From NCBI RefSeq assembly GCF_964355755.1, contig NC_092678.1, positions 1,697,922 to 1,761,921 on the forward strand: a stretch of 64,000 bases of DNA, given 5' to 3'. Under the pieces are notes generated by a model that saw nothing but the letters and a program-made list of their open reading frames with translations, had not been told where the DNA came from and did not search any database. Shown here one piece after another: positions 2,816 through 36,200 of this stretch; position 1 is the first letter of the stretch, and each line of letters begins with the position of its first letter. The DNA comes from Antedon mediterranea (taxonomy: Eukaryota > Echinodermata > Crinoidea > Comatulida > Antedonidae). Position numbers and translations under genes: made by a program.

Positions 2816-3664
2816 TCTTCTGCTTTTACCAAAGTCTTGTACTGTACTTCAGTTAGCATGCATTTTGATTTTTCTCCCTCTTATCTGTCCAGAAAATAAA
2901 AATATATGAGGTGATCATCAAACATACATGTAACATATTAACAAATGAATATGGCATTCAATATTAATTACTGTAAAAATAACCAAGATTATTTATTAAA
3001 ATCATAATATATAACCCTGATTTAGATTAGATTGTGGACTATCACACTGTTAATAAACAGGGCGAAACGACTCAATGATTAAGACCATATTATATGCTTA
3101 ATAATAATATGCTGTGTAGTGTTATGTGCGGCGGGTGAGATCTCTAGCTAGTTAGGGCCAGGCTAGCCTCTAGTAGGCCTACTACTAGAAGAGAGACTTG
3201 CCACCTTGAATCCTACATACCATATATTCAGTACGGTAACAATAGATTAAAAATATTGTTTGTTAATTACAAATCCTATCTACAATTATAAATAACCCAT
3301 TAACGCATACAGTCACAACATTTAGCTGTCAAAAGAAACATGAATTTAGCCTTTTAAACATGTCTATCACACTCGGTCGGTGGTTCCTTGTTTACATTTT
3401 GAGATAAAAGCGTGTTGTTGCCTCTGGTTACATTCTATAGAGGGCAGCAAGCAAAACACACCCTCACACAGTACACACACTCTATTTTTATTTTTAATTT
3501 AAAGTCCCACAATGCTTCATGCGCCATTTTACACTAATGTTTTGATCGGTCTTCGGAGTTTGCTTACATTGGTGTAAGTTTGTGCCACTAATTTGGCATT
3601 TTCTGAGCAGTTTTAATCACCTAAATGTATATGGTATTGTAGTTTGTAACATAGTTGACCAACC
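2816..3664. promoter_or_regulatory. Divergent promoter region between EF-hand gene and OTUD5
   Basis: Start codons of two oppositely oriented genes lie 849 bp apart here, so both promoters and 5' UTRs must be inside unless an upstream non-coding exon exists. It is less AT-rich near 3120-3200 and 3360-3600. No clear TATA box or other specific site was identified. Confidence 0.45.
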
Positions 3665-6600
3665 ATGACGATTTTACCGAAGAAAAATTCTTCGAAAGAT
3701 AAAAAAGACTCGAAACAAGGAGAAGGCCATCACTCCCACTCGCAACTCCATAATCCGAGTGGAGAACATAGGTCAAGTACAGGAGCTCGACCGAAATGTA
3801 GGAATTCGCCTCCTAGATGGCTTTCCGGGAGTTCTAGAGAAGAACGGCACTCATTAAATGAAAGTAGATTAGCATTTAGAGAAAATTATGAAAGCTATGA
3901 ACGGACAAATCGGCCACAAAGTGCAAAAAGGGCACGTCATAGATCCTCCCCTCATCGAGAACATGTGGGAGGGGCAAGGACAAGTGCTGCCCATACAAGC
4001 AGCAGATTGGAAAGTGAAAATGAACAACAACAAAGAGAAGCTGAATCAAGTTTAGGTTATGAAGAAAGAAATAGTGAAGATGAATATGATCTCTCATCTT
4101 GTTCAGACCAAGAGTTTGAAGAGGTATAAATTACGCAAACATTGAAAAAAACAATTTAATTTGGGCCTTTGAAATACGAAATTATGAAAATGATACTGTA
4201 TAAGATAGGACTATTCCGTATTACATATTAGGCCTATATATTATATAAGCTAATAGAGTAATTGTACTGTTTTGCATTTAAGAAGCTGAAGTACTGTAGT
4301 TACTAGAAGTAGAGGTTAAGCTCGTCCATTATTATTAGTCATCACGGTAGGCCTAGATATGAGTGACCAACATAAAAGATAATTTCAAAGTGGCAATAAG
4401 TCACGTATTAAGTGCAAATAGTGTAGTGGAAGGAAGGGTATTAGTAGTTTTTAACGAAAAAGTGGACAAATGCCTAATTTTGTTAGTTTACGTTGAGTCT
4501 AATAAAGTAGTTTCATTACATTGTCTCACTATAAACTACTTACTAGGATTTACCATACAGGTAATATATGTCCAGATAAAAGTTAAGAAAAACCAAGTAT
4601 CTCTAATTTATGGCATAGTGCCAGCTAATTACCAACAGTTATTTAATTGTTTTTATTGTTCTAAACTTAGTTGGAAGCCCGGTACGAAAAGTTAGTGAAG
4701 CAGAGACGAGGACTGATAATTAAGAAGATGGTCCCAGACGGTGGTTGTCTCTTCAGGGTTGTAGGTGTGTAAATTAATTTGTTATCATGGTATAATTCAT
4801 ACTGTACAACCATAGTATTTTGTGTGAGATTCCATTTTTTGTTATCGATCTAAACAGTATGTTATTGTGGGATTACGATGTGAAATAACTGTTGTCTAAA
4901 AAAATAATTTTAATTAATATAAATGTTATGTTTGCATGAGCCTACTGTCTACACAAATGTGCTTAATAGTTAATTTTACCAATTTCTCTAAATTAACTTT
5001 TTGTAGAATTAACTAATTTAAAAAAGATTCTTTCTTTTAACCATTAAAAACACATTAAAAAAAACACACACTATGGCATTCCAAGGGTGTCCACGATACT
5101 TTATATTATTATTATTCTTTTTCATTAGCATTTAGCAATAATGATATTATAATTTCTTTACAGCTGATCAGGTTTACGGTGATCAGGAGTGGCACTCAAT
5201 AGTCAGACAGCATTGTATGGATTATATGGTACGTTCCATTATATACTTAATTTACAATATGTTTGCACAAAGTCTCTTATAACGGTGCTTAGACTAGCCA
5301 TGAAGAATATGCTTCTTTAATCACATGCTATCTAAATATTACGTTTTGTAATACAATGCTGTATTATACTGTACTGGCGATATTCAGAGTTTGTTGTTAG
5401 TAACTATAAATTTATTATCTATAGTTTATTTAATTTGTTGTGGATGTTATTGATTGATGTAATTGATTCACAGTTTTTATATGTATTTTTACATTTAAGA
5501 ATTATGAATTTGATATAGATTTAATTTTCTTTTTTAAATAATTCTACTGTATGGGCAACTTGATGTTATATCCACTATACTGTAAGACAGTATAGTCCCA
5601 GTGAGCCAGGGGTATGAAATATGGGGAACATTAAGGGGTTGGATTATATCATTTTATTAAAGTCTTCTGTCTAAATTTAGCCTATATTAGGGTGTAGGAT
5701 TATACTTGGCTATGGGATTACTATAGTATAATATAATATTACATTACTAAAAATTTGTTTTTTTATATTTAAGAAAAAAGAGTGCAATTTTAACTTTTTA
5801 ATTTATTTTGAATTGATCACTTTATTTCTGAATAAATATTCCATATACAACAAATACAAAATGGAAAATCACACTAAAATAGGATTTTTTCACATCTTAC
5901 ATTAAATGTCAGGACAATTATAACAAATGTTTAAGAAAAGTTTAATTTTGGAAAGAAATGGGAAAAACTACCTTTTTCTTCGGGCCTCTAATTTGATCTA
6001 AAATGGTGTTTATTGTAACAAAATGTATTCATGTACATCATTGCATTTAAGAGGTAAATGAAGTTGAAACAATATAATGGTAATTTTATGCAAATTGATC
6101 GTTCTGTTTTCTCTCTCGGTTAAAAAAAAGCCTATTTATACATTTCTCACATTTCCTTTCTCATCACCATTTATCTTGTTTTCTTTTCTCTTGCAGATGA
6201 AAAATGCAGATTATTTCTCGCAGTTTGTCACTGAAGATTTTACAACTTACATCAATAGGAAACGACTAAACGATTGCCATGGAAACCACGTTGAAATGCA
6301 AGCTATGTCGGAAATGTACAATAGAAATATAGAGGTGTTTGTGTACAGTCTAGGTAAGTTACATTGTCATGAAATATAGAGGTGTTTGTGTACAGTCTAG
6401 GTAAGTTACATTGTCATGAAATATAGAGGTGTTTGTGTAAAGTCTAGGTAAGTTACATTGTCATGAAATATAGAGGTGTTTGTATACAGTCTAGGTAAGT
6501 TAAATTTTCATGAAATATCCATTAAAGAAATGTTTATTGTACTTTTTTTTTATGACACAAGAACAAGAGCTTTTAAAACTAAAGGTTATTTTATATTTTT

Positions 6601-10977: not shown

Positions 10978-13052
10978 TTAACAATTCCAGTTGTCATCAT
11001 TTTCTGGCAATTTAAATATGACAAGTTTTTCATCTGCTATTTTCAGCATCAAGTAATATACATTATCATTTTCAAAGAATTCATCCACTGCAAAATTGGG
11101 TCCACATACAACGTGCCATTCTCCTCCTGGAAGAGACTGTTGCAATCTTTTCGACACTTCAGTGCATAGCTTATCACGAAATTTACACGTTATGATTACG
11201 CGATTGACAATTCGGCAAACTCTTGCGTCAATAACATCATCTCCGTCACTCTCTACAACCTTAGCTTCATAACTAGACAGATTTATATTAGAATCAATCG
11301 ACTGTTTGTAAACGAAAATCTTCTCGCAGTCATTTACGATAACTGCTTGACCGTAAGTAAATTCAGATAGACAGAGGCCATAGTTCCCACCCATGACACA
11401 AACCCAGAATCCTCCGTAAGTCTCGCACATCCTCTTGTTTATGTAGCGAATACGTGTATCCATGATTTCCATATAGTCAAAAGGTATTGTGTATGTTTTT
11501 TCTCTGGTATTCTTATAGGCTTCACGGACAACCTGAACCAGGAAATTCAGTTGGTCTGAAGGCATTGGTGTCATCTTGGATGGAAGAAAATCTACTTTTA
11601 AGTCTGAAATTAATAATGGAAAACCATTTCTTAAATTAACATGACAGAATGAGCAACTCAAATGACCGAGTGGTTAAGGCAGGGGCACCGTTTACCTACC
11701 TAAAGTGCCAACAATTTCGTCATGGGTTCGAGGGTTAGGTTTCGACTCATGCCTCCTAGCTCTGGTGGCGGAACAAGTCTTCTCTGGTAAGGACTATAAA
11801 CCATAGGTCCACTGTACACAGTTTGTCTGTGTGTACTTGGAACCCAGATCATCATTCGAGACGAGTAGGGGTTACCCCGATGAACTGTTTCACAAAATAG
11901 CCTCTGTATCAGAGTGATTACCTGATTATCTGATAGGAAAGTGATTATTTACTATTGGAAATCTTGGGCACATGTGCCTAACTACATAAAATAAAATTTA
12001 ACAAAATGAATATGATAAAATAAATATCAAACAATTCTATAGTGGTAATAAAAACACTTTATTTAGCTATATTTCATTACAATATAATTGGAGGCAGACA
12101 AGTACATACCAATTCTGTGGTCTGCAACTACCCCCAAAGTTGCCAAGACATCTTCTTGTCTTGCTAGGCAAACCATATTTGGTTGAAATTGAATTTTGCT
12201 GGGTTTCTGTAGTTTTGGAACGTTCACTGCTGATATTTCATTAATTGTCTGCAGAACATCTGCACGACTGTACGCTAAGTCAAACTCCTGGCCATTTACT
12301 TGCAAGTTACTGAAAAATGCTGCTAATTTTGACAAAGTCTTCTGACTAGAATCAATTGCTGAATGTGTTTCAGAAAGATGTTTTTTAGTCGACAGTTCTT
12401 GAATCTGAGATGAAATGTTGTCGCGCTTGGTCTTCAGAGCTTTTAATGAAGCATCGTAAATCTTCTCCAATTCACTCTCTGCCTCAGCTACTGATGCGTT
12501 TACCTCACCTTCTCGTAACATCAATTTGCTTTCTGCTACACTAAGCTGTGTCTGCATTTCATCAATCTTTGCGATGCCTTGCTCAATATCTTGTCTAGCA
12601 CGCGAAGCTGCTTCAGAAAGATTCACGCACCAGTGGTTCGGTTTGGGATGATCAAGAACTATACAGTCCCTGCACACCGGCTTACAACATTTCTTGCAGT
12701 AAAAATTCATACGCTCACCATGTAAATGGCATCGTGTATTAGTATATTTCTCTTTACAACTTCCAGACTCACTTTTGCCACTAACTGTAAGTTTTTCCAT
12801 CTTGCTTTTAAAGGCGTCAATCATGCTTGACACGAAAAACATAGATTTGAGGCTTGATGTGGAACCTTTCGACAGGACGGTCACCTCCCTACACGTGGGA
12901 CACTCAATAAGTTTGTTGAGTTTCCATTTTGAAAGACAATGCTCACAAAAGAAGTGAAGACATTCCAGTTGTTTTGGTTTCACACATTCCTCCATACATA
13001 TCTGACAATTTAAGAAATCAGACTTTAACTCTTCCAAAGAATTAGTAGCCAT
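10978..13052 (-). CDS. TRIM-like RING/B-box/coiled-coil protein with two C-terminal LC8-like domains (copy A)
   Basis: Two exons, 12110-13052 and 10978-11603, joined by a phase-1 intron to 522 codons. Exon 1: an RING-HC from about residue 17 (CQICMEE ... CLHFFCEHCLSKW ... CPTC), a B-box 2 (CHLHGERMNFYCKKCCKPVC, then DH and H ligands), and a coiled coil rich in Glu/Lys/Ala heptads, about residues 145-240. This is the tripartite layout of TRIM ubiquitin ligases. Exon 2 encodes two domains that read as dynein light chain (LC8/DYNLL). The first has FWVCVMGGNYG and then YGQAVIV. The second has EWHVVCGPNF and ends KLVIFKL. LC8 itself has TWHCIVGRNFG and ends YLGQVAILLFK. It is expected to be a cytoplasmic E3 ligase using LC8-like modules for partner binding; the second part is inference. 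Its intron is 506 bp because a SINE inserted there. Confidence 0.85.
11656..11880 (+). mobile_element. tRNA-derived SINE in the intron of TRIM-LC8 copy A
   Basis: The head has a Pol III A box of class-II tRNA type, TGACCGAGTGGTTAAGGC, and a B box, GGGTTCGAGGGTT. The body contains GGACTATAAACCATAGGTCC and ends near GTAGGGGTTACCCCG. A second copy on the other strand at 38256-38470 shares head, body and end. It is inserted opposite to the host gene. Introns of the sibling genes at this position are only 143 and 101 bp. Confidence 0.8.
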
Positions 13053-14566
13053 CTTTTACTACTGGTAACAGAATTCTATCAAGGTAGTCTCTGAGCAGGA
13101 GCCATTTTCTTTTCTTTTTTTATATGGCCTTCTGACCTGACACGTTGCAAGTCCCCCTGTTTGTGTTGTCTGGAACACCACAGTAGGCCTATAGCGTGGG
13201 AAACTGCATATGTTATTGTTCTATCCAATAGCCTATGCTTCGACCAGCGGTTGTGTTATCAAACAATAATCTCTTTGAAACCAAATATTGGAAATATTGA
13301 CAACATAAATCGTATGCGCAAACTGGTCACACAATATTGACATGGATGTGTCAAGGATTAGGCTAATTGAAGACAAATATTTTTCTTTATAACAACTGTG
13401 TTTTTCATCGGACCACAGGATCATTTTCTTTCGACCGTAAATTACAAATAATACAGTATTTGAGATTATTACTAAATTGTAATTTTTACATTTAGATTAT
13501 TAAATTACTCCTCAAAACTTTAAAGCTAATTATGTGCCGCTTTGTCATGAATATCCCTGAATTGATATAGCAGATGTTTATACTGAGGCATTGGTGGTTG
13601 GCTAATGCTTATGGCATCTATACGTCACAGCCAATCGCCAGGCCTCAACCCCTTGTTTATTTTTCACCTGTCCTAAAACTATGTCTATGTCATTGTCAAA
13701 CTCTTGATAAATAATAAATAAAAATATTTGCCTTCACTAACATAATTCAGATCTTGGAGTATAGGCCTACTGATAAGATAGGAAACATATTGAATCTTAT
13801 GCCATAATACTTTTGATGAAAACTTAATAGACATGGTATAATTTTATTGTAATTTGGTGATATTGGAGTATTCTTGGTATTTAGCTCAAAGTGCAGTTTT
13901 GAAAAATTAGAAGCCTACACATGGTTGTGTACATAATTAAAAGCATACATCTGGTTTCAGTTCCTACCGTTTAATACTATGTAGATATTATGAAAATATG
14001 GTCACCTGAGGTCACGCTAGCCCCATCAATGCTTGCTGAGGTAAGACCTGAATTGCTTGACATGGTCCAAAAACGAACATATCGATGTTTTTAAGTCAAA
14101 TTTTATCCACAATTTGTTTTGGTCTTTCACGCTTAGATTTTTGTTCTGCAGTATGGTATCTTGCAGTAATCAGACTTTAACACGCCACTTGTTGGGGTTA
14201 ATCTGTGCATACCCCTTTTTACAGGATTTGATTTTATATAAAATCTCTAATAGTCCGTTTGGACTGCGCCATGATAGACTTGACGTTATTAAAGATATAC
14301 ACGTGTATTTTTAAAATTAACTGTATTTATTACCAGAAGTAGAAATCATGAACAAAAAACTGTTGTTTACATGGATAGGCAGATCAAATCATAAGAAGCT
14401 GGTCCCGATTAAAGAAATTTGAAATGATAATACATTGCAATACATCACCATATACTGTAGATATCTATCGGAATTCTTTACTGTTTAACTCTAATATATT
14501 ATTTGATTATTTATGATTAGAGATAGTTAAAGATGTTAATACGGGTAGCAAGACAAATTTTCACAT
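13053..14566. other. Upstream region of TRIM-LC8 copy A and downstream flank of the remnant copy
   Basis: The part next to copy A (13190-13440) shares blocks with the upstream of copy B and probably contains the promoter. The part at 14380-14530 resembles 18690-18850, the downstream flank of copy C. The open frames at 13233-13424 and 14057-14314 carry nothing recognisable. Confidence 0.55.
13190..13440 (-). promoter_or_regulatory. Conserved upstream block of TRIM-LC8 copy A
   Basis: Shares ordered short blocks with 17141-17430 upstream of copy B: GTGGGAAACT, TATCAAACAATA, CTTTGAAACCA, AAATCGTATGCGCAA and ATCGGACCA followed by GATCATTTT. It was either duplicated together with the genes or retained by selection as promoter sequence. 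No TATA box is evident. Confidence 0.45.
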
Positions 14567-14630
14567 TCATAATTTAAATATAACCAACTCTTCATATGCT
14601 ATTTCCAGCGTCATGTAATATGCTGTCGTA
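14567..14630 (-). pseudogene. Remnant of a fourth TRIM-LC8 gene (last ~20 codons of the second LC8-like domain)
   Basis: On the minus strand 14620-14567 reads YYMTLEIAYEELVIFKL and a stop. It matches the C-terminal strands of the second LC8-like domain in copy A (YYLMLKIADEKLVIFKL). Upstream of this fragment the coding sequence ends abruptly at about 14630. It is replaced by sequence resembling the downstream flank of copy A (10455 onward). The rest of the gene has therefore been deleted between two array units. Confidence 0.8.
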
Positions 14631-14631
14631 T

Positions 14632-15409
14632 AACAATTAAGAACTTATGAATAGTTTATAAATTCAAATAAACAAAATGTAAGACTAATTTATATATTTC
14701 TCAATATATTTTTGTTTTTATTTGTTACATATGTACATGTACAAGAAAAACACACTAAATACTGTCGATGCTTGTTTGTGCTCCACGAATTGTCTTCTAA
14801 ATAATATTATAACTATACTGCCAAATGAACTGGATGTTTTGTGGCGCCAATCAGTTTTATTTGGTCTACCATTCCTAATTAAATGTATTCTGGCAGTCAG
14901 GTGGTATGTGTAGTAGTTAAGGAGAAAAAGAAGTCACAGATTTTGATCCACATAAAGGACATTTTACAATTGAAGATTCTTTAGATGGAATAGGCCCTAT
15001 TGTTTCTAATCTGTACAGTTATTACTGCATTTGATTATAATATATTAATATGTTTGTTACAGGAGATTTTTTCCCCAGAAATTGCAGATACTGTAAAGGT
15101 AAACTACATTTTCCCCAAAAGTAGAATTACTGTATCAACAATAACTATTACAACTACTACCTTCTGGTTTAAAAATAATATTAAATTTTTTGTAATACTG
15201 TACTTCAATGAAAAGGGTATGCTAATTTGTATTTTATATACAATATGTATGATAATTTGAAAGGTTGAAATGTGCATGGCAGAAAACTTGAAAAATTGAA
15301 CGTCATTGCAAAATAATCAACAGCACGCAATTAACTAATCAAATAGCAAAAATACCAGGGTGTGTTATAATGATGTTATGAATGATGTTATAATACAGTA
15401 TATTAGCAA
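14632..15409. other. Downstream flank of TRIM-LC8 copy B
   Basis: The first ~150 bp resembles 10455-10624 downstream of copy A, for example AACAATTAAGAACTT followed by GAATAGTTTAT and AATAAACAAAATGTA. The remainder is AT-rich with no recognised feature. The open frames at 14722-14913 and 15000-15260 look like chance. Confidence 0.6.
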
Positions 15410-17095
15410 TTAAACCTCTGGCAATCTAAATATGACTAGTTTTTCATCTGCTATTTGCAGCTTCAAGTAATAAATTGTATCATTTTCAGTTAATTCATCC
15501 ACTGCAAAATTGGTTCCACATATGACATGCCATTCTCCTCCTGGAAGAGACTGTTCCAACCTCTTCACCAGTTCAGTACATATCTCATTACGAGATTTAC
15601 AAGTTGTGATTACACGATTGACGATTCTGTAAATTCTTGCATCGATAGCTTCATTTCCATCACTGTCTACAACATTAGCTTCATAACTTGACAGATTTAT
15701 CATAGGATCGTCAGTCGGATATTTGAAGACAAAAATCTTTTCACAGTTGTTTACGATAACTTGACCAAAAAAAAAATCAGAAATCCACAAGCCAAAGTTG
15801 CCGCCCATAATACAGACCCAGAATTGTCCGTATGTTGCGCCCAATCTATTGCTTATGTGACGTTTGCGCGCATCCGTGATATCCAAGTAGTCTTTAGGTG
15901 TTCTATATGGGTTTTCTTTGATATTCATGTAGGCTTCACGGACAACTTGAACCAGGAATTGATGTTGGCCTGAAGACATCTTGGATGGAAGTAAGTCAAT
16001 TTTCAAATCTGAAAAAGAAAACCATTTCTCAAAGTTAATTAACATGACACATGATATCTGGTTGTATTTTTTATATATTTGTCATACTGCTATTGAGAGA
16101 CATTTGGTTCCACCCCAATTTATTTAGCTTCATGCCATTATAGTTCCATACCAATTTCCTGGTATGCAACTACCCCCAAAGTTGCCAAGTCTGCTTCTTG
16201 TCGTGCAACGCAAAACATATTTGGATGAAATCTAATTTTGCTAGATTGTTGCTGTACCATCGGAACATTCACTGCTGATATTTCATTAGACTTCTTCAGA
16301 ACATCTGAGTGACTGTGCGCTATGTCAAACTCTTCGCCGTTTATCTGCAAGTTACTGAAAAATTCCGCTAATTTTGACAAAGTTTTCCGACTAGAATCAA
16401 TTGATGAATGTGTTTCAGAGAAATGTCGTTTATCATTGGCCGACAATGCTCGAATCTGAGATGAAATGTTGTCACGCTTGGTCTTCAGAGCTTTTAACGA
16501 AGCATCGTAAATCTTCTCCAATTCACTCTCTGCTTCGGCAACTGACGCTTTTACATCGGCTTCTTCAGACATCAGTTTGCTCTCCGCTACACTCAGCTGC
16601 GTCTGCATTTCATCAATATTTGCGATGCTTTGCTCAATATCTACTCTAGCACGTGAAGCAGCTTCAGAAAGATTCACGCACCAGTGGTTTGGTTTGGGAT
16701 GATCAAGTACTATGCAGTCCCTACACACTGGCTTGCAACATTTCTTGCAGTAAAAATTCATACGCTCACCATGTAAATGGCATCGTGTGTTTGTGAATTT
16801 TACTTCCGAACTTCCTCCAGCCCCACTTTCGTTCATCTTGCTCTTAATGGCGTCGATCATGCTTGACATGAAAAAACATAGATTTGAGGTTTGACGTGGA
16901 ACCGTTCGGCAGGACGGTCACCTCCCTACACGACGGGCACTCGATGCGCTTGTTGCGTTTCCATTTTGAAAGACAATGCTCACAAAAGAAGTGAAGACAT
17001 TCCAGTTGTTTTGGTTTCACACATTCTTCCATACATATCTGACAATTTAAGAAATCAGACTTTAACTCTTCCAAAGAATTAGTCTTAGTTGCCAT
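15410..17095 (-). pseudogene. TRIM-like RING/B-box/coiled-coil plus two LC8-like domains (copy B), +1 frameshift in exon 1
   Basis: Exon 1 is 16152-17095 and exon 2 is 15410-16008, with a 143-bp phase-1 intron. The RING (CQICMEE to CPSC), B-box and coiled coil are as in copy A. Exon 2 carries the two LC8-like domains with FWVCIMGGNFG and EWHVICGTNF, both very close to LC8. A run of six T on the coding strand at about 16873-16879, where copy A has five, shifts frame between RING and B-box after SMFF. The upstream frame ends about ten codons later. With that one base discounted the gene is open throughout (513 codons), so it is either a very young pseudogene or a homopolymer error in the assembly. 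All zinc ligands are present. Confidence 0.8.
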
Positions 17096-19107
17096 CGTTT
17101 ACTCATAAGTCCTTTCTGTTTCGTATGGCAGAACATACCCCGTGGGAAACTACTGAACACATCATAAGTAATACTATCCGCTAGCCTATGCTACAACCGC
17201 CTGCTGTTGTATCAAACAATATCTTTTGAAACCATCTGACTGTGTAAATAATAATGCATCTTACCTGAAAAAAAAACAACGAAACTAAACCAGGTATAAA
17301 TCGTATGCGCAATTTGATCGCTCTTTCACATTATGTCGAGAATTAATACTGACAAAGAAAATATTTAGCCTGACAAGTTATTTCATCAAAATCGGACCAT
17401 GAAAAGATCATTTTGTTACGAGCGTAAGTTTTACGTAGACCTATTACTAAAATCAAAATATTACTATAATATATAGTTTTCATATCATGAATTATTATAT
17501 TAAGTTTATAATAATTCAACATTTATTAGTTTCTATCAATGGTATAACAATACAATAAAAAAGAATGATAATTTATAATAAGAAAATACAAAAAATACCA
17601 TTAATAGAGGATCTTGCAAGAAGAGAATACTTGTCACGCAAGACCCATAAACAAAAGAAAAAAATACATTTGTATATAATTATTAAATAAAATAAAAAAA
17701 AGTCATGACAAAAACAGTTTGAAGGTCTAGTTTGAGTACAAAGATAAAGTATGAGGGGTGCACCCACCCACCCTATAAATCTGTACCACAAAACAAAAAT
17801 TATCCTACCATAAGGAAAAATCATCGGGTAAGACTAAGTACTGTCAATTTTGATTAAAACACATTGTTTCAGCGTGCTAATTTAGTCGCCATTGCTGTTT
17901 TTATACCTAAACCCTTAAAACACGCTCTTTCACTATGTATATTATTTAACATAACTAGGCCACGGGCCACATGATAACTTTGAAGTCCTGTCACTTTTTG
18001 AAATGTTAAGACCGTACCGGAAGTACTTTCATCGGGGACTTCCCCCTGACGTTCGCATTGGACGCAAAGAATGTTACCACTAGCAGGGCCGTAGCCAGAA
18101 TCTGTCAAGGGGGGGGGGGGGAGGGGGTTGTGACACTAAGTATTTGGGTCAACCATCAAATTGATCAAATGAAATAATCCAAAATGAAAGGACTTTTGAA
18201 AGCAGATTTTATCTTCAAATTAGTGTTTGTTTATTTTGTTTGCATTGACAGAATGTAATACTTTTTTTAGCACGCCAGAAACCATTTTATTTGACAAGGT
18301 AAGTACTGTATGTAAATGAATTATTTTTTTTTTAATATACATTGAAATTGTTTAATGTTAATAATATTTTTCAATAGTGCGCTCTGATTTTGGATGTGGA
18401 GAGAAGAACTATGGACCCATGCACTTTATAGGTTGGTTTTCAGTCACATTATTTCACTTCGCACAAAAATCTCAATATATTTACAAAAAGCTGCCCATTG
18501 AGTAGGATTGGGTGAAATAACCCACACCATGAGATGCAAATGGAATGTTAAGTGTTATCAAATTTATTTAACTAATTTGTTTTACAAGGATAGAGATATT
18601 ATTGTCACAAATCAAATCCAAGAAAAACATCTTTTGGTTTTTGTTTTATTACAATAAACTTAGCCACGTACAAACCGTGTCTGGGCAGAAGCAACTGGAA
18701 ATTCAAGCATCTCATCCTGGCCCTGATTAAAGTAATTGAACATACAACATACGCTACTATTTACAGCATGTACTGTAGACATCTGTTACTCGTCATATTC
18801 GTTATTCCAATCTAAATATGTTTGTTTATTTATGATTGTTTATCTTGGCGACTACTGTACTCTTAATCTTTAATGATGACTACATTTATTGTTATACAGT
18901 ATACAGTATATAATAAAGCATCAAAATAAGAAAGTTAAAAAAACATTTTGTAAAAAAAAGGTTAGAAGCAATTTTAAAACATAACATGGTCTTTTCTTAT
19001 AAAGAGATCAAGTAAGTAGCTTAACACAAACATTTAAAAATGCAAGTTTTACTATATACATTAATACCTAACCCACTTCCATACCTTTAGATTAAAAAAT
19101 ACGAATC
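17096..19107. other. Region between TRIM-LC8 copies B and C
   Basis: Positions 17141-17430 are the conserved upstream block of copy B. At 18088 begins CAGGGCCGTAGCCAGAATC followed by a G13 run and GAGGGGG, resembling a hAT-type MITE end; the same word appears inverted near 27450. Positions 18690-18850 resemble the flank at 14380-14530. No gene was recognised; the frames at 17573-17824 and 17869-18108 have no support. Confidence 0.5.
17141..17430 (-). promoter_or_regulatory. Conserved upstream block of TRIM-LC8 copy B
   Basis: Counterpart of 13190-13440. The best-kept word is AAATCGTATGCGCAA at about 17297-17312. Spacing between blocks differs by small insertions, so the short blocks stand out as better preserved than the sequence between them. 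Confidence 0.45.
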
Positions 19108-20768
19108 TTAACAATAGCAATCATGTTCTTTCATTTGAAATATGACCAGTTTTTCATCCGCTACTTCCAGCTTGACATAATATTCTGTATCACACGCAAA
19201 GAAATCATCCGATGAAAAATTGTGTGCCAATAGAACATGCCATTCTCTTCCCGGAAGCGACTGTTGTAATCTCTTCCGGAGTTCGTTACAAAGCCGCTCG
19301 CGATATTTACATGTCGTGATTGCGCGATTGACGATTCGGCAAACTCTTGCATCGAGAGAATCATGTCCATTACTTTCTAAAATCCTGGCTTCGTAACACG
19401 ACAAATTTATACTTGAACTATTATCCGGTTGTTTGCAGACTAAGATCTTCTCGCAGTCGTTCACAATAACCACTTGACCATAGGTAAACTTGGACAGGCA
19501 CAGACAGTTCCCACCCATTACACAAATCCAAAATTCCCCGTATGTCTCACCTAATCTATTACTAATGTGGCGCATACGTGTATTCATGATTTCCTTATAC
19601 TCTTCAGGTGTTGTTTTCACATGTGGTTGTTTTGGGCTTATATTCTTGTAGGCTTGACGGATAACACGAACTAGAAAATCCTGTTGGTTTTTACACATGT
19701 CAGATGGACGTAACTCTATCTTCAAATCTAAAAACGATAAAAAGAAACAATTAATACTTAAAATGTACAGTGCTATCAATAGATGCAATTAAAAGTAGAT
19801 TTATAGTTAGTATTACAAATATTCATACCAATTTCCTGGTCTGAAACTAAGCCCAATGTAGACAAGGGTGCTTTCTGTCTTACAAGACAAACCATATTTG
19901 GTTGAAATCTAATTTTGCTGGATTGTTGCTGTACCATCGGAACTTTCACTGCTGATATTTCATTGGTCTTCTTCAGAACATCTGCGTGACTGTACGCTAG
20001 GTCAAACTCTTCCCCGTTTACTTGCAAGTTACTGAAAAACTCTGCCAATTTTGATAGGGTCTTCGTACTGGAAAAAATTGCTGACTTTGTTTCAGAGAGA
20101 TGGCGTTTATCATTGGCCGACAATGCTTGAATCATGTTGTCACGTTTGGTCTTCAGAGCTTTTAAAGAAGCATCATAAATCTTTTCCAGTTCACTCTCTG
20201 CTCTGGCAACTGATGCTTTTACGTCGCCTTCTCGTAACATCAGTTTACTCTCTGCTACACTCAGCTGTGTCTGCATTTCATCAATATTTGCGATGCTTTG
20301 CTCAATATCATGTCTAGCATGCGAAGCTGCTTCAGAAAGATTCACGCACCAGTGGTTCGGTTTGGGATGATCAAGTACTATGCAGTCCCTGCACACCAAC
20401 TTGCGACATTTCTTGCAATAAAAATTCATGCGCTCACCATGGTATTGACATCTTGTGTTTGTGAATTTTACCTTATCACTTCCACCACACACACTATGTT
20501 CACTCACTTTTTCCATCTTGCTTTTAATGGCGTCGATCATGCTTGACACAAAAAACATAGATTTGAGGCTTGACGTGGAACCATTCTGCAAGACGGTCAC
20601 CTCCCTACACGTCGGGCACTCGATACGCTTGTTGCGTTTCCATTTTGAAAGACAATGCTCACAAAAGAAGTGAAGACATTCCAGTAGTTTTGGTTTCACA
20701 CATTCCTCCATACATATCTGACAATTTAAGAAATCAGACTTTAACTCTTCCAAAGAATTAGTCGTCAT
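19108..20768 (-). CDS. TRIM-like RING/B-box/coiled-coil protein with two C-terminal LC8-like domains (copy C)
   Basis: Exons 19829-20768 and 19108-19727 join through a 101-bp phase-1 intron to 519 codons, with no disruption. The RING and B-box are nearly identical to copy A; the first ~60 residues differ at only a few positions. The first LC8-like domain has FWICVMGGNCLCLSKF and is one residue shorter than in A and B. The second has EWHVLLAHNFSSDDF, where the usual glycine after W..... is lost, and ends KLVIFQM. Exon 2 is clearly more divergent than exon 1, so this copy probably has a different ligand range. It is divergent from the SH3-FAM107 gene, whose ATG lies 448 bp away. Confidence 0.85.
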
Positions 20769-21215
20769 TGTTTAGTCAAACTTAAAAAAAACACGAGAAA
20801 AAAGCAATTTTTAAAATATTATTAGAGGCCTGACACTTGTTGCCGTTCCTTGTATTTTATAGCGTGTTCTCGACTCCTCCTTGACGCGACCTCTTCATCT
20901 CAAATTACAACCACATGGCAATGGCATCAATAACATTCGTCTTGGAGCTCTAGAGGGAGTAGTACAAACACGTTTTGTGACAGATCCGGAGACCGCCCTC
21001 TATAATTTTAAGTACCGCCTGAAAGTTGATCACCACGTCGCTCCGCTCTACCAGTCGTGTCTGCTCTATTCAAAACATTGAAAAGTGAAGGCTTAGGATA
21101 TACGCGAGTTCAGGTCTAAGTATTTCCTGATTGGAACCTATAATATACACTTGGTTTTTATATCTTGGAAATGATACATTTTTCTGTTTGAGTCGTTTAT
21201 ATTTTATAAGATTTG
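20769..21215. promoter_or_regulatory. Divergent promoter interval, TRIM-LC8 copy C / SH3-FAM107 gene
   Basis: 447 bp between two opposite start codons. It does not share the upstream blocks seen for copies A and B, so copy C may be regulated differently. No specific element was identified. Confidence 0.4.
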
Positions 21216-24200
21216 ATGGCTCGTTTTAAAGCAAAATTTGACTACGTCAAAGAACGTGATGATGTTTTAAGTTTCAAAAAGGGCGACCTGTTTGAGATAA
21301 CTAACAAGGTAGATGAACGGTGGTGGGCGGCGCGTGCCGAAAGTGACAACAGCATCGGCTATGTGCCAGCCCTTTACTTGGAGGTAAGTTTGCAATTCGT
21401 CACACCTAGGCCTAAGTCATCCTCGTTTTTGGTGTGTTTTGGTCGTCTTGCTGTAGGCCTACCTTGTGTTAGTGTAATAAATACCTATAAAGTCCTAGGT
21501 ACAATTGAATATTTAAGGATTCATAATTATTATAAAATTGGTACTAATTCACACCTTGATTGAAGCAAGTAAAATTGTACAATCATGTAGAATTTAGAGA
21601 GGCAGTGCATAGCATATGACAGGTGGATTCCATGTCTTTGAAGTACATACAGTACTTTTTATGTCTATTTCAACAGCTAATTTCAATAAAAATGATCATT
21701 ATTTTAATAGTAAAATCATGGACCTATTAAAAAGGTCCGTGGTAGAATCTCATATATAATACTTTATATATAATTATTTTAAATAACATTGCAATATTTT
21801 ATACATTTTTCAAACCCACTTTTCAAACCCACTTTATATGAATTCTGTTTTTCAGAAGGTTATTTGTGTATTTACTGTACTTAATTACATACGATTATAT
21901 TCTAAAATACATGATGCACCTCTGATACAATAAACATTGAAATACTGATTTTGCAAGGTATATTTGATGATATTAAAACACGGCAATTTCTTTATAATGC
22001 GTCAAATTCATTAACAATATGTAAACCTCTTGAAAATGTTAATAGGAATGTCTGGACATGTGACTGCACAGTTATTCATGATTCACATATAGCCTTTCTC
22101 ATAGGCCCTGTTTCTGCTGCCAACTAAATACCGTATATTATACGGTATTTTTTTAATACCGTATATATACGGTATATTTTTGGCAGCAGAAACTGCGCTC
22201 ATAAAAAATATACCGTATTTTGTATACCGTATTTTCTCCACAAAATTTGTGGATAAAATACGGTATTTACAAATTTATACCGTATTTTTTGTACCCGTTT
22301 CTGCTGCCAATAAAAAATACCGTATTTTTTTTTTACATGACAAAAGGTCAACATTCATGTTTTTATTTTCTGTCGCTGTCAGCTGCTTTACACACGTGTA
22401 TAGATATATTCGGCGAAAATGTGGAGCGAAGACGTCACAGTTTTACTAAATAAATGTGTGTGGGGAAGCTAAAATTTCTGGCCAACTAAAAGGTAATAAA
22501 AGGGACAACCACATTTATAAAGACATTTCTAAAAAAATAAAGCAGGAGTATGGAATAGACTTGTCTCCAAAGCAAGTAAACTCAAAGCTGAAGAGCCTGC
22601 GAAAGTAGTACAACATTGTAAAATACAATAATTCGGGGAGGGAACGAATTAATTGTCCCCATTACGATGTTTTCTGTGCTCTCACAACATCTCTATCACT
22701 AGGGCTAGGCTGTTGAAAGTGAGACGTAAAATTTCCTTTATTGCGACTTTTAATTATCGATCAAATAAATGAATGGCAATTTGGGTAAAAAAGATGAAAT
22801 TTAACACGACCACCCAAGAAGTATTGTTAGCAGAAACGGGGTACTAAAAAAATACGGTATAAAAAATACCGTATTTTTATACCGTATTTTGAGCAGTTGC
22901 AGCAGAAACAGGCCCACTCTCTTCTGAGTTAAAGGGATCATTTGGTGGAAATACTTATTTATATATACTTGCATATATTTTATTTTGGGGAAATGTTTCT
23001 CTCAAATGAGGTTAGGGTTATCTCAAATAAGATAAGTATATACAGGCCACAAGACTAGTGTAGGCTAAATAAGTCTTAAGGTCTAGTTCACAATATTGGT
23101 AGAGGGATGAGGGGAGTTGGGTGGAGTAGGGGAGGGTGTTGTTAAGTTCCCCTTTTGTAAAAAAAGAACCCTCTGACTATAACAAGCTGGTTACAGGCTT
23201 ATGAACATGTTGTATAGATGGCCTTTAAACGTAACAAGTAGTGTTTATATTCCAATGGCATCAATATAGACCTTTTGTACTTACCTGCCCAATCAATAAA
23301 CCTCTTAGTGTTTACAAAATGTGGCATGAACTCAGTCTTGTATCTGCCCATGAGCGCAATTATACCAACCCAAATATTTTATCAAAATGATGACACCAAA
23401 CAAACTTGATCATCTGTAAAGGATTTGTCTATTATTTCTCAAATATTATAGTTATTTACCTTGTCAAAGGATGGGTGTGTCAAACTACGTTGCTGCTCAC
23501 AAAAGTACTATCAAAGATTACTGTATGCTTGACTGTCTACAAACATTTTAATCTTGGAACATGATTTGTTATTTTCCAGTATTAAATTGAATTGTTAATA
23601 TTGGATAAATATTTGAATGCTATGTTTACATGCTTTTTTCTCTATATTAGAGTTAAAGTTCAATTGGTTAAATTTATTGTGTGTTCAACATATGTTTTAA
23701 GAACAATTGCAGTCTTTTCATATACTGGAAGTGTCATCATGGCACTGACACTCACCATTATCTTATTGAACTTATTAAAACCATAATGTCCTACTACTGT
23801 ACACAGAGGTATTCCTTATGAAATGGATGCTCGTATGTTAACACCACCTAGAACCAACCTAAATACGTGCCTAAGGGCTGCTTTGATCCAGAGATCTGGA
23901 GACAACTTCATTGTTCCATCCCCTTTTCAATTTAAACTGAAAACTCACTATTTTAATAGCTACAGTATTTTTTTCATGTTGGCGCTGTGAGACTCCGATA
24001 AAGAGTGGTTTATAAATGTTCGATATTATTTTATTATTATTATGACAGTTTTATTAGTCTAATTAAAACTACTGTATAGTTTAATGTACTTCCAAAATCC
24101 AACCAGCATCAACGTTGGTGCAAATTGATATTTTAGGTTGTTTTTGGGGAAGATTCTATTGTTAATTTCCTGGTAAAATGTTTTTACTCTTTTTGTTTTG

Positions 24201-30200: not shown

Positions 30201-33200
30201 ATTCGTATGAAACAATTTCTAGAAAAGTAAAAAAAAACAAAAAAACTGTATTCTGAAACGTAGAAATAATGTGCGTACTATACTTATAGTGTTAGTAGTA
30301 GTAATTTGAATCAAACAGTCCATTTAGTTCTTATTTTAAACAGTGCCATAGCTAAAGCTCTGTCTACACTATCAAACTTTATGTGAAAAAAAATGTGATA
30401 TGCCCATATATGGACATGATGATGTCATATCACTACCATGTTTTTGGCATATCACTACCATGTTTGGGCACATCACACTTTTTTGTGTCAAACTAGATAG
30501 AGCTTTAAGTACAGATTAGCCTTCTTAATGCGTTATTCAGATATTTAGGCCCTATTTGCAAGTGTCTAGATATTGTTAATTAATTTTATTTATGTTTTGA
30601 ATTTGAGTTTCTGTGTTCTCAATCTGTATCTTCTTTTAATGTGCTTGCTTTTGCCATCTAGATTGTTCAGAAAATAGTATAACCATTTATAGGCCTTATA
30701 TTCATAAAAATAGCAATCAGTTGTATGTAGTAATAGTATAATACCGACATAAGAATAGCAGTCACCAGGCTGTACAACAAAGTAATATTTCCGTAAACAA
30801 TACATTTCTAGTGAAATGGATTATTATTGAATTCTATATTACACAATTCTATCGGCAATTGTGAATGTTTTCCTGTTGGTTATTCCCAATTGTATCCTGG
30901 ATGTACACTCCCATAGTTGTATTGTTGTACATTCACTTCCGGCTGGAATTTATACAGTGTACTGTGTCATTGGTCAGACATAGGACTATTACTGTCTACA
31001 GTACTTGGTTTGTTTATATACAGTACTTGCTGTATAATTGCATATTTATTATCATTTTATATATTTTTCTGAGAATTTGATAATAATAATAATAATAAAT
31101 AACATTTATAAAGCGCAAGAGACAAAGGTTTCAAAGCGCTGTGTTTTCCAAGATCTGTGCAAGTAATAGCGTGTGATTATGCTTCTCTGAAGAGATGAGT
31201 TTTGAGTTTAGTTTTAAATGTGATTACAGATTTTGATGAGCGTATTTCGAGGGGTAGAGTGTTCCAGAGTTTTGGGGCTGCGACAGCGAAAGCACGATCA
31301 CCGTAAAACCGAGTTCTGGAACAGGGTCCAGGTTTTAGAAGAAGTCTGCTGGATGAACGAAGCGTAGAGTTGGTTGACGGAGTAATGATGTCACATATGT
31401 AGGCTGGAGCACATCCGTTGATGGCCTTATATGTCAGCAACAGGATTTTAAAACGAATGCGCTGATCTCTACAGGCAACCAGTGTAAGTCACGTAAAACG
31501 GGAGAAATATGTTCATGTCGTTTAGTGGCAGTGATAAGTCTTGCGGCGGAATTTTGGATAATTCGTTGAAGAGGAGACAGATAAGAAGTTGGTAGGCCAT
31601 ACAGAAGCGAGTTATGACAGTCCAGACGAGATGAAACAAAAGCATGAACAAGACGTTCAGTTGATGTTTTGTCACGGTACTTACGAATCTGGCCGATCTG
31701 GTAAATTCCAAAGGAAGCACCACGGCAAACATTACGAATGTGTTCTTTTAAACCGAGGCTGTTGTCTAGTTGGACGCCTAGATTTCTGGCTGAGCTGGAG
31801 GTAGAGACAGTAGTATCTCCGATATGGACCAAAGGAAATGATGATGCCTCACGGAACTTTGAATGAAAATGGATCATTTCAGTCTTGGAGTCGTTGAACA
31901 TGAGTTTATTTTGAATGGCCCATGAGCGAACATCTGCGATGCATGATTCAAGGCTGTTAACAGATTCAGAATGATGTGTAGGTTTCATGATTAAATATAA
32001 TTGAGTGTCATCTGCATAGATCATATGACGAACTTCCGGGTGGGAATCAGTGATGTTGCTGAGTGGTCCAGTGTATAAGATGAAATCGAGTGGACCTTTT
32101 ACGGATCCCTGCGGTACACCCCAGGGTAGAGCGAACTCATCAGACATCGAATCATCCACAATGATTGCTTGTCTACGATTCTCAAAATATGAAATAAGCC
32201 ATTTCAATGCGGTTCCGCTTATGCCGTATCTTTTCTGAAGACGTTGAAATAATAAATCATGATTGATAGTGTCAAATGCGGCGGAGTAGTCGAGTAGAAT
32301 AAGTACCGCTTCATTACCTTTGTCTAAAGCAAGTAGTAGATCGTTTGTAACACGTAATAAAGCGGTTTCAGTTGAGTGGAAGCGGCGGTATGCTGATTGG
32401 ACTTTTGAAAACAGGAAATATTCATCCATATATGCTTTTATCTGAGCAGTTGCAATTCTTTCCAAGACTTTGAAAAGGAAGGGAAGATTTGCTATTGGTC
32501 TATAATTTTGTAGGACGTTGGAGTCGAGATTTTGCTTTTTCAACAGTGGCATAACAAGGGACAATTTAAATGCAGATGGTACAGTACCTGATGACAGCGA
32601 CATGTTGACGATTTTAGTGATATGCGGTAGTAGAGCGTCAATGCAGTTTTTTAGTAACCGTGTTGGAATTGGGTCAAGTCTACTGGACTTAGATGCGCTT
32701 TCAGCGATGACTTTGCGTACCGTATCTTCTGATGTTTGCTCAAATTCAGCGAAACTACTATTACATGAATCGTCGACGTTGACAGTTATTAGTGGAGTGT
32801 TTATGGAGTTAAGTTTCTTGCAAATCTTCAGAATCTTTTCATTAAAGAAACAGCCAAACTGGTTTGCGAGATCCATTGAAGATGTGTGTTTTTGCAGAAC
32901 AGGAGAAGAATCGACCGAGTACAGTTTACTTATGATGCGGAAAAGGTTCTTGTCATCCGCATTAGCGATTTCATTGCAATGATAATTGCATTTTGCTAGA
33001 TCTAGCATATCTTTATATGCTTTGCATTCCAACTTGTACCTCTGTTTGTTGATATCCAAACCAGATTTCTACATTCTGCGTTCTGATCTCCGTTTGACGC
33101 ACTTCGCTTCACGGAGTTCATTCGTGTACCATGGTGCCCGTGGTCTAATGGTGACCAGTTTAGTTGTTAACGGAGCATGTTGGTCAAGGATGTACTGCAA

Positions 33201-36200
33201 TACATTATTGTATTGGTCAGCGAGATCGGAGACATTATCTTCCGGTGCGCAGACGAGCGGGGAATTCATTATATCTTCCACAAAACAATTTAGATCAATG
33301 TTACGAAGTTTGCGGTAAGAGGTTGTCCGCATTGGTTGTTTAGGATGTGATAAATCCACCAAGCTGATGACAGCCATATGGTCGGATGGTAGTCCTTGTT
33401 TGACAGTGGTTTGTTTTATTATGTTGTCGTTTTTCCGAGAGATTAGAAGGTCCAGTGTGTGCCCGCTAACGTGAGTGGGGCCTTGGACATGTTGATGAAG
33501 ACAACTCGTGTCAAGCAGTTCATCAAATCGCTTGGTGTTGTTGTCTAAGAGGTCATCTGTGTGAATATTGAAATCACCAACTATCAGAAGGTTTTTGGTG
33601 CAAGAGACTGATTCAAGAAGTGATGAGAATTCAGTGATGAAAAAGTCAAAGGTAAGTTTGTTTTTGGTCGATGGTGGTGGTCTGTAAATTGCAATCAAGT
33701 TAATTACAGATGAATTGGAAGTGATCTTGATATCCATATGTTCGAAAGACCGGAAACTTGTTTAAACATTTGGTGTTATTTGGAGTCCACGGTGCAAAAT
33801 GATGCATATTCCACCTCCGCGTCCACCTGTAGGGCGTGGCGCATGTGACACCACGAAATTTTGGAGGGTGTTACTCACGTCCGCGATAAAGTCACTTGCA
33901 TCACCTTTCAACCAACTTTCGGTAATTACTAAAATGTCTATATTCAACAGCCAAAATAAAATCACAAACGTGAACAGTTTTATTTCTTAAAGAACGCGCA
34001 TTCCACAGTCCAAAACAGATGGAACTTGAACTACGAGATTGTTCAGTATCCACAGAAACAGGTCCGCGAGGTTGACAGATGTGTTCAGTGGCGGCAGAGA
34101 TAAGCTTGCTTCGTCGGCGACCAGCTTTCTTTCCTCTATGTTTTTTTCGAGTTGAGAATGCTCGGCATGTGATAAAGGCATTGATATTCAAACGATTTAT
34201 AGTGTCAATTAGATGGAGTCAACGATGACTTTAAGTTTCCTGATAATCTGAGAAGTTGATCACGATCGTAGTAAATCATAAACGCTATAGATGAACTGAC
34301 AGGTTGAATTAAAGTCAATGAACACCCGTTATGATAAGACGATTCGGTTCTGTGAAGTAAGCCGACTACTACAATCCTAGGCCTACCGTAGTTGACAAAT
34401 CCGGCAAAGAATGTTGAATGAACCGTGGATACGGCTGACCGCGAAGGCTGACTGCACAGGAATGTGAGTAGAAAGGCAAACAAAACTGGCCTAGGAAAAA
34501 CGGAGCATTAGTTTCGCTAGTAGACCAACGATGTTATCTTCACAATATACATACAACGGTCAGTAATAACCAGGAAAAGTTTGATGTGGCATTAAACACA
34601 CAGATTTCAGTATACAGAAACTGTAATTTTACAGAAACTTGGAGAACAGATAATCAAACTTCTTTCAGAGCAAACATACTTTCTATGTATATTTTATATG
34701 CAAATGACAATAAATGTAAGTAATTTTCCACTGATGAATGAATGAATTTGTTGATGACGTAGTGTATTTCATTATCATTCCAGTTCTACAACTTACAGTA
34801 TAACCCCTCCTTTGAGAAATCCCTAGTTAGGGGACATTCCTATTTAGGGGATTCCTTTCTGTGAAATGAATGACGGGCATTATTTTAACACTATGGTCAG
34901 CAACCTGTACGGCCAGCACCTAATCAAGTGGACACCCCTAAAAGGTCCGGACAGTTTATTGGGTACTGAATACTGTTGCATCCACTGAATACTGAACGGA
35001 TAAAAAACTTGTGAAAACTTTCATACTGTACATATCTCAGGGACATACCCACCAGTACGTTTGGTAAGGTTTCAACCTGACCACTTTTTCACAGAAGCCT
35101 TTTACAACCCAGTGGCTTAAACAGGAATTGTTCCATTTTCTTGCGAAAACCGGACCACTTTATTTCTCGTGGCTACATCACTGTATCTAATTTAACAGAC
35201 AATATTTTATTTGAACGTAAAGAACTTTAGTTCAGTAGCACTTTTAATGTGAAACAAAAAGTGTACAATTAATTGATATCAAACTTGAAAGTTTAATTGA
35301 AATTAATGTTATCGAAACCAAAAGATAATAATGATTTTATGAGGATGATATATTCATTATTATTCAATTTCACTTCCCTTTGTTATATTTAATGATGATA
35401 GATTTATAAACTCTCTAATAACCACTTAAGGTAAAACACTGATTATAAAATAATCATAAATTATTAGTATGACCAATTAAGCATTGATCTTGGTATCTCC
35501 ATCTGCTGTTACTAATTGCATAGTTATTTGTGTTGCTATAGAAATATTACCCACAATCAATCAGAATGCACCTTTGTAAAATTTCTGTTCAGATTATGTA
35601 TAATGGTAAAATAGTATTAATTTCTGTTCAGATTATGTATAATGGTAAAATAGTATTAATTAGCGTCTACGTAATATACTGTAATTATATTCTAGTAGCT
35701 TTAGTTTTACAATTTAATTATTATTCATCGACGAAATTCAGATTAGGAGCTACAGTGCAGCTCATATGAACAGCGGTATGAACTTTGTAACTCTTTTCGA
35801 TACCAAGTTTCTTTATCAGCTTTACCTCCCATCTGAAGGATGAGAGGAAAGAATCTTGCGTTGTGTTATAATCTGCATACCACAAATTATGCTAAGACAA
35901 TCTACACTTTACAACCAAGGCAATCTACAGTAACAACAGGATGCTGAGCTAGCTCGCCTTGCCATGATAGGAACGTGCTTTGATCTTATGTCTGGCTGCG
36001 ACAAATACTGTAGGTCAACGGTACTGTACTATGTATCATCATATTCTCCGTGGTGTCTGGAGGGCGTGGAAGTGATCATGTCACAGCCACAGATTGTTTG
36101 TTTGTTTGTTTTATCTTTATACTGGGTAACCTCTTCAGTCAAAGACTGATCTCCCAGAGGGCCCAGTTGGTGATCAGTGGCTGTGATGTACAGTACAGGA

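What the first reader, a model, noticed from the sequence alone, without database searches (positions are those of the whole stretch)
10978..20768. A tandem family of TRIM-like proteins ending in two dynein-light-chain (LC8)-like domains
Seen: exon 1 of each gene gives RING, B-box and coiled coil. Exon 2 gives two domains each with the LC8 core W-(H/V)-x-(I/V)-x-G-x-N-F, preceded by an amphipathic helix and ended by a hydrophobic strand. From the W onward domain 1 aligns to DYNLL without a gap (WVCVMGGNYG against WHCIVGRNFG; later YGQAV against YLGQV). Established: TRIM C-termini (SPRY, NHL, MATH, cyclophilin in TRIMCyp) choose the target, and LC8 is a hub that binds short linear motifs and is used by several viruses. 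Inference: a ligase whose sensor is a captured LC8 pair could degrade LC8-motif partners, possibly pathogen proteins, as a decoy similar in logic to TRIMCyp. I do not know of any description of this architecture.
Basis: partly seen in the sequence, partly recalled or inferred. Interest (0 to 1): 0.88.

Follow-up and report, generated by a model that had tools for sequence, protein, structure and literature searches.

The report
Feather-star TRIM ligases with LC8 tails
A crinoid (feather-star-type) genome carries a small, repeatedly duplicated family of TRIM-type ubiquitin ligases whose tail is a pair of dynein-light-chain (LC8) domains, a combination I could not find described, but whose LC8 ligand-binding residues have changed so that their targets are unknown.

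Summary
Three tandem minus-strand genes (10978-20768) each have a RING/B-box/coiled-coil exon spliced, by a phase-1 intron, to an exon encoding two LC8 domains. Pfam PF01221 hits each exon 2 at 6e-12 to 2e-14, and each half separately. An AlphaFold2 model matches solved LC8 structures in both halves (Z 12.2 and 10.5). One gene (B) has a frameshift after its RING.

The architecture is not local or an exon-joining error. The same genome has an uninterrupted 606-aa ORF, RING-B-box-B-box-coiled coil-LC8-LC8 (PF01221 1.8e-23), on another chromosome. There is also a divergent 3-gene cluster with LC8x2 and another with a single LC8-like domain, all with the same phase-1 intron. The animal is a crinoid: it encodes crinotocin.

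At most 3 of 12 peptide-groove/beta-3 residues survive, against 11 of 12 in a divergent stand-alone LC8 paralogue of this genome. Its "YGQAV/YLGQV" match is out of register.

Best reading: dimeric TRIM E3s that use a rewired LC8-fold pair as the target-binding tail. Ligase activity, expression and ligand are untested. I found no published description in the library available. New variant of a known kind.

The parts
19829..20768 (-). Gene A exon 1: RING (C3HC4, residues 16-55), B-box 2 (from residue 107), coiled coil; ATG at 20768
   Evidence: Pfam RING 7.9e-8, B-box 4.4e-8; zinc-ligand spacing; 75-residue helix in low-confidence AF2 model
19728..19828 (-). Gene A phase-1 intron, 101 bp, G|GTATGAAT ... 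TTTTTAG|ATTTG
   Evidence: sequence
19108..19727 (-). Gene A exon 2: LC8 domain 1 and LC8 domain 2, stop
   Evidence: PF01221 5.9e-12 whole, 3e-5 and 9.5e-6 per half
16152..17095 (-). Gene B exon 1: RING, B-box, coiled coil; one-base frameshift near 16871 separates the RING from the rest
   Evidence: B-box 6.6e-7; frameshift read directly, stop at 16846
16009..16151 (-). Gene B phase-1 intron, 143 bp
15410..16008 (-). Gene B exon 2: LC8 domain 1 and LC8 domain 2, stop
   Evidence: PF01221 2.1e-14 whole, 1.1e-5 and 9.3e-8 per half; AF2 model and fold matches
12110..13052 (-). Gene C exon 1: RING, B-box, coiled coil; ATG at 13052
   Evidence: RING 2.6e-6, B-box 2.5e-6
11604..12109 (-). Gene C phase-1 intron, 506 bp
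10978..11603 (-). Gene C exon 2: LC8 domain 1 and LC8 domain 2, stop
   Evidence: PF01221 2.1e-13 whole, 1e-6 and 1.1e-5 per half

Best explanation
These are crinoid TRIM proteins: a RING that should recruit E2-ubiquitin, a B-box 2 and a coiled coil that should make an antiparallel dimer, followed by a tandem of two LC8-fold domains in the place where other TRIMs carry SPRY or NHL. The LC8 pair most likely acts as the substrate- or partner-binding module. The fold core is kept, but the canonical LC8 peptide groove and the beta-3 exchange strand are rewritten, so it should bind ligands other than TQT-type LC8 motifs, and different ones in different clusters. The data are most simply read as one old fusion with a tandem LC8, followed by spread to several chromosomes, tandem duplication, and loss of domain 2 in one cluster. 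Shown here: domains, gene structure, fold match, family spread, purifying selection, loss of groove residues. Inferred: ligase activity, dimerisation, target binding, single origin.
For: Domains: PF01221 in both halves, RING and B-box above Pfam cut-offs. Fold: Z 12.2 / 10.5 to LC8 in the two halves. One gene: uninterrupted 606-aa ORF on C2 with RING, two B-boxes and two LC8 domains; same phase-1 splice junction before the LC8 exon in the C9, C7 and C4 clusters. RING keeps all eight zinc ligands. Selection: dN/dS 0.23-0.27 in exon 1, 0.32-0.40 in exon 2, 0.41-0.59 in LC8 domain 2, so the proteins are kept but the tail changes faster. Groove residues: 0-3 of 12 kept, against 11 of 12 in the stand-alone paralogue. 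D1 of C9 and C7 and the single C4 domain group apart from the D2s and stand-alone LC8s (86/88, not a firm branch); hhalign puts C4 nearer D1 (1.9e-6) than LC8 (3.5e-4).
Against: No transcript, protein, ligase or binding data. The RBCC tree puts the C2, C9, C7 and C4 genes apart on long branches and rejects them as an exclusive clade (p 0.004), although a clade that also holds the transmembrane TRIMs is allowed (p 0.39); independent fusions are therefore possible, for C2 above all. Exon-1 AF2 model is poor (pLDDT 47.5). Exon-2 model confidence is moderate (69.9) and lowest exactly at beta-3. The C4 domain is only weakly LC8 by Pfam (0.013).
Confidence: 0.66

Rival explanations
1. One reading: the LC8 pair is a captured decoy that binds the same TQT-type linear motifs as host LC8 and lets the ligase degrade LC8-motif partners, possibly viral proteins (TRIMCyp logic).
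For: LC8 fold in both halves; LC8 is a known target of viral proteins, e.g. solved LC8-Ebola VP35 peptide complex 7d35 in the hit list.
Against: Residues that contact the peptide in LC8 (F62, S64, Y65, T67, H68, F73, Y75, Y77) are replaced in nearly all copies; 0-3 of 12 kept versus 11 of 12 in this genome's divergent stand-alone LC8.
Confidence: 0.1
2. The LC8 domains serve location or assembly rather than target choice: they pair with host LC8 or dynein/axoneme parts, or form an intramolecular LC8-type pseudo-dimer that holds the TRIM dimer in shape.
For: LC8 proteins dimerise by beta-3 exchange (established); nearest solved relatives are dynein-arm light chains.
Against: beta-3, the exchange strand, is strongly diverged and the least confidently modelled part; domain 2 evolves faster than the RBCC.
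Confidence: 0.15
3. Two neighbouring genes, a short TRIM-like RBCC gene and a separate LC8-tandem gene, read together by mistake.
For: Exon 1 stays open past the donor to a stop, so an unspliced RBCC-only protein could exist.
Against: C2 encodes the whole architecture in one ORF; nine genes in three clusters alternate exon 1/exon 2, and good phase-1 GT/AG pairs are found in eight of them.
Confidence: 0.03
4. Decaying duplicates without function.
For: Gene B is frameshifted, the C7b exon 2 is broken and a fourth C4 exon-2 match has an in-frame TGA.
Against: Genes A, C, C7a, C7c, C4a-c and C2 have open frames; dN/dS is well below 1 in both exons.
Confidence: 0.06

Closest known systems
TRIM family E3 ligases (NHL class, as in this genome's own large arrays)
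   Same: RING, B-box, coiled coil in one exon; RBCC of the window genes matches TRIM-NHL genes of the genome (E 6e-22)
   Different: C-terminus is an LC8 pair on a separate phase-1 exon instead of NHL/SPRY; one B-box in the window genes, two in the C2 gene
LC8 dynein light chains (DYNLL1/2, PF01221)
   Same: fold, W54/G59/C56 core, helix-helix-beta order
   Different: tandem and fused to a TRIM; groove and beta-3 residues not kept; not about 89-residue stand-alone proteins
TRIMCyp (TRIM5-cyclophilin A)
   Same: a TRIM RBCC with a small household-protein fold as its C-terminus (known from the literature, not tested here)
   Different: cyclophilin in TRIMCyp keeps its ligand site; here the LC8 ligand site is rewritten, and the fusion looks old and multigene rather than a recent retrocopy
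Trematode tegumental proteins with EF-hand plus dynein-light-chain domain (FhCaBP2, FhCaBP4, CsTAL3)
   Same: precedent for an LC8-like domain as the C-terminal part of a fused animal protein (5fx0, 5x2d, 9voa)
   Different: calcium-binding proteins with one LC8-like domain and no RING or B-box

Membership tests
TRIM family | N-terminal RING with complete zinc ligands | tested here: met
   Pfam above cut-off in A and C; C3HC4 motif at residues 16-55; broken off by a frameshift in B
TRIM family | B-box 2 | tested here: met
   PF00643 4.4e-8, 6.6e-7, 2.5e-6
TRIM family | coiled coil after the B-box | tested here: inconclusive
   75-residue helix 144-218, mostly at pLDDT 75-86; Pfam TRIM_CC only 0.39
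TRIM family | E3 ubiquitin ligase activity | not testable with these tools
   needs in vitro ubiquitination
LC8 / DYNLL (PF01221) | significant match to the family profile in both halves of exon 2 | tested here: met
LC8 / DYNLL (PF01221) | LC8 fold | tested here: met
   two halves, Z 12.2 and 10.5, rmsd 2.2 and 2.7 A; model pLDDT 69.9
LC8 / DYNLL (PF01221) | conserved TQT-peptide groove residues | tested here: not met
   0-3 of 12 kept in 14 TRIM-borne domains; 11 of 12 in stand-alone paralogue L003; residue list recalled from LC8-peptide structures
LC8 / DYNLL (PF01221) | beta-3 domain-swapped homodimer | not testable with these tools
   beta-3 below pLDDT 50 in the model
TRIMCyp-like decoy ligase | captured domain keeps the ligand site of its household parent | tested here: not met
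   groove residues lost
TRIMCyp-like decoy ligase | restricts a pathogen through that domain | not testable with these tools
   no functional data

The most novel reading that the evidence does not exclude
A previously undescribed class of TRIM ligase, spread over at least four chromosomal loci of a crinoid, in which a tandem LC8 fold has been turned into a diversifying recognition tail with a rewritten groove, comparable in role to SPRY or NHL and possibly immune.
Probability: 0.35. Interest if true: 0.82.

Novelty: new variant of a known kind. Interest (0 to 1): 0.7.

Why it matters
TRIM ligases choose targets through their C-terminal domain, and known examples use a short list of folds. An LC8 pair in that place would add a fold best known as a linear-motif hub. 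It would also show that the LC8 scaffold can be freed from its otherwise strongly conserved groove, and give a natural template for peptide-directed protein degradation. It also gives crinoids, a poorly studied deuterostome group, a duplicated ligase family whose role (immunity or otherwise) can be tested directly.

Tried and rejected
Viral contigs and prokaryote genomes were scanned for relatives of exon 2: none, so viral or bacterial origin or contamination is not suggested. NCBIfam gave nothing useful. Contig C17 was tested as a mitochondrial genome for taxonomy: it is not one; crinotocin settled the question instead. A single exclusive clade of LC8-bearing RBCCs was tested and rejected (p 0.004), but single origin with loss in the transmembrane TRIMs is allowed (p 0.39). 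D1 and D2 as separate clades were neither shown nor rejected (p 0.26, 0.42). Positive selection: pairwise dN/dS is below 1 everywhere, so I do not claim an arms race. That groove positions are significantly more diverged than the rest was not shown either (9% of random position sets are as low); what is shown is that they are not conserved, in contrast to real LC8 paralogues. The exon-1 AF2 model is too poor to use beyond the long helix. Other library searches for TRIM plus dynein light chain returned unrelated papers.
Full report
What is there. On the minus strand of the window, three head-to-tail genes occupy 20768-10978. Each has a first exon of about 313 codons and a second of about 200. 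Exon 1 matches RING and B-box models above Pfam cut-offs in A and C, and B-box in B. Exon 2 of all three matches Dynein_light (PF01221) well above its cut-off with two stretches each. When the two halves of each exon 2 are searched apart, all six match PF01221, at 3e-5 to 9e-8. The RING has the full C3HC4 ligand set. AlphaFold2 on gene B exon 2 with its two paralogues gave pLDDT 69.9 and the order E-H-H-E-E-E twice. Foldseek and VIA-align place the first half on human and fly LC8 (Z 12.2, rmsd 2.2 A over 82 residues) and the second on outer-arm LC8 chains (Z 10.5-10.6).

Is it one gene? In all three genes the donor is G|GTATG and the acceptor ...AG|A(T/C)TT, phase 1, joining at an Asp codon. 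The introns are 101, 143 and 506 bp and do not align, while the exons do. The decisive evidence comes from the rest of the genome. A PF01221 search of the 354-Mb assembly found stand-alone LC8s (two near-identical, one divergent, one DNAL4-like fragment) and, beyond those, only matches in TRIM-type genes. One lies on C2 in a single uninterrupted 606-codon frame: RING, two B-boxes, coiled coil, acidic linker, two LC8 domains, with PF01221 at 1.8e-23, B-box 1.2e-7 and RING 2.7e-5. A second cluster on C7 has three genes with RBCC exon and LC8x2 exon (PF01221 2e-13), about 21-23% identical to the window's tails. A third on C4 has three genes whose second exon holds one LC8-like domain and an acidic tail. 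C7a, C7c and all three C4 genes have the same phase-1 junction before the LC8 exon. The C4 domain is weak by Pfam (0.013) but aligns to the C9/C7 first domain at 1.9e-6 by profile comparison, better than to stand-alone LC8 (3.5e-4).

Broken copies. Gene B carries a one-base frameshift near 16871; its first frame ends at 16846 after 83 residues, so its RING is cut off from the rest. C7b has a broken exon 2, and a fourth C4 exon-2 match has an in-frame stop.

History. A tree of the LC8 domains puts the first domains of C9 and C7 with the C4 domain, and the second domains with stand-alone LC8 and C2, at 86/88, not a firm branch. All TRIM-borne domains lie on one side of stand-alone LC8 at 82/91. 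This fits one old tandem fusion with later loss of domain 2 in C4, but does not prove it. The RBCC tree leaves the four loci apart on long branches. Holding LC8-bearing genes as an exclusive clade is rejected (p 0.004). Adding the transmembrane TRIMs that are sister to the C7 genes makes it acceptable (p 0.39). Single origin plus one loss, or two fusions (C2 apart), both remain open.

Which animal. The genome has eleven contigs of 22-41 Mb plus seven scraps. The published Antedon mediterranea crinotocin, CFWRTCPVG-NH2 (PMC9793003), is encoded exactly once, after a signal-peptide-like stretch and before GKR, on C4. This is a crinoid, probably Antedon or close.

Mechanism. From established TRIM biology (not tested here), the RING would load E2-ubiquitin, the B-box and coiled coil would dimerise, and the C-terminal domain would choose the target. 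Here that place is taken by LC8 folds. In 14 TRIM-borne domains 0-3 of 12 are kept (pooled 20 of 161, against 191 of 912 at other positions). The divergent stand-alone LC8 L003 keeps 11 of 12 at 60% overall identity. What is kept is the core: W54 in 14 of 14, G59 in 13, C56 in 10. Canonical TQT ligands are therefore unlikely, and a rewritten ligand surface is the better reading. Pairwise dN/dS is 0.23-0.27 in exon 1 and 0.32-0.40 in exon 2, with domain 2 at 0.41-0.59. The genes are maintained, and the tail, the second LC8 most of all, changes faster than the ligase part. Nothing shows positive selection or an immune role.

Known or new. The nearest TRIMs in this genome end in NHL repeats. LC8-like domains fused at a C-terminus have precedent in trematode tegumental proteins (5fx0, 5x2d, 9voa), but without RING or B-box. 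Ten searches of the held papers were run. Eight looked for this architecture or for TRIM-LC8 links and found no TRIM-LC8 description; two were for the organism. That library lacks most subscription journals, and automatic domain databases could not be consulted, so the novelty claim is 'not found', not 'absent'. I file it as a new variant of the TRIM family: a true TRIM by domain content (ligase activity untested) with an LC8-family tail that fails the groove test and so should not be called an LC8 hub.

Noticed in passing
L048:1088-2905 (G000:C2:16903087-16904904): The linker before the LC8 pair of the single-exon TRIM-LC8 protein contains DKATQITS, close to the LC8-binding motif KxTQT; it could be read by host LC8 or by its own tail.
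   Followed up: no
L045:7466-8365 (-), L046:2881-3906 (-), L047:569-2194 (-): TRIM-like RING/B-box/coiled-coil genes ending in a transmembrane-like helix (by eye) are interleaved with or near the C7 TRIM-LC8 genes and are sister to them in the RBCC tree.
   Followed up: partly
G000:C7:26.5-27.8 Mb, C3:26.39-26.41 Mb, C9:23.8-25.2 Mb and others: Large TRIM expansions: 134 matches to the window's exon 1 at E<=0.001; most of those read through are TRIM-NHL in single exons.
   Followed up: partly
window 16871-16846: Gene B frameshift (G in A/C replaced by CA in B) truncates the RING part to 83 residues; downstream exon 1 and exon 2 still show dN/dS below 1 (0.25-0.27 and 0.38-0.40), so the break looks recent or the RING-less product is kept.
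   Followed up: partly
window 31434-33761 (-): LINE-like element: endonuclease (PF14529 1.3e-9) and reverse transcriptase (PF00078 1.4e-26) frames.
   Followed up: no
window 3659-6379 (+) and 21210-21563 (+): Neighbours: an OTU-domain exon (OTUD5-like by eye) on one side and an SH3 exon (5.6e-14) starting about 440 bp from gene A's ATG, head to head, on the other.
   Followed up: no
L043:2231-3193 (G000:C4:29760730-29761692): A fourth RBCC exon at the head of the C4 cluster without a recognisable LC8 exon before the next gene.
   Followed up: no
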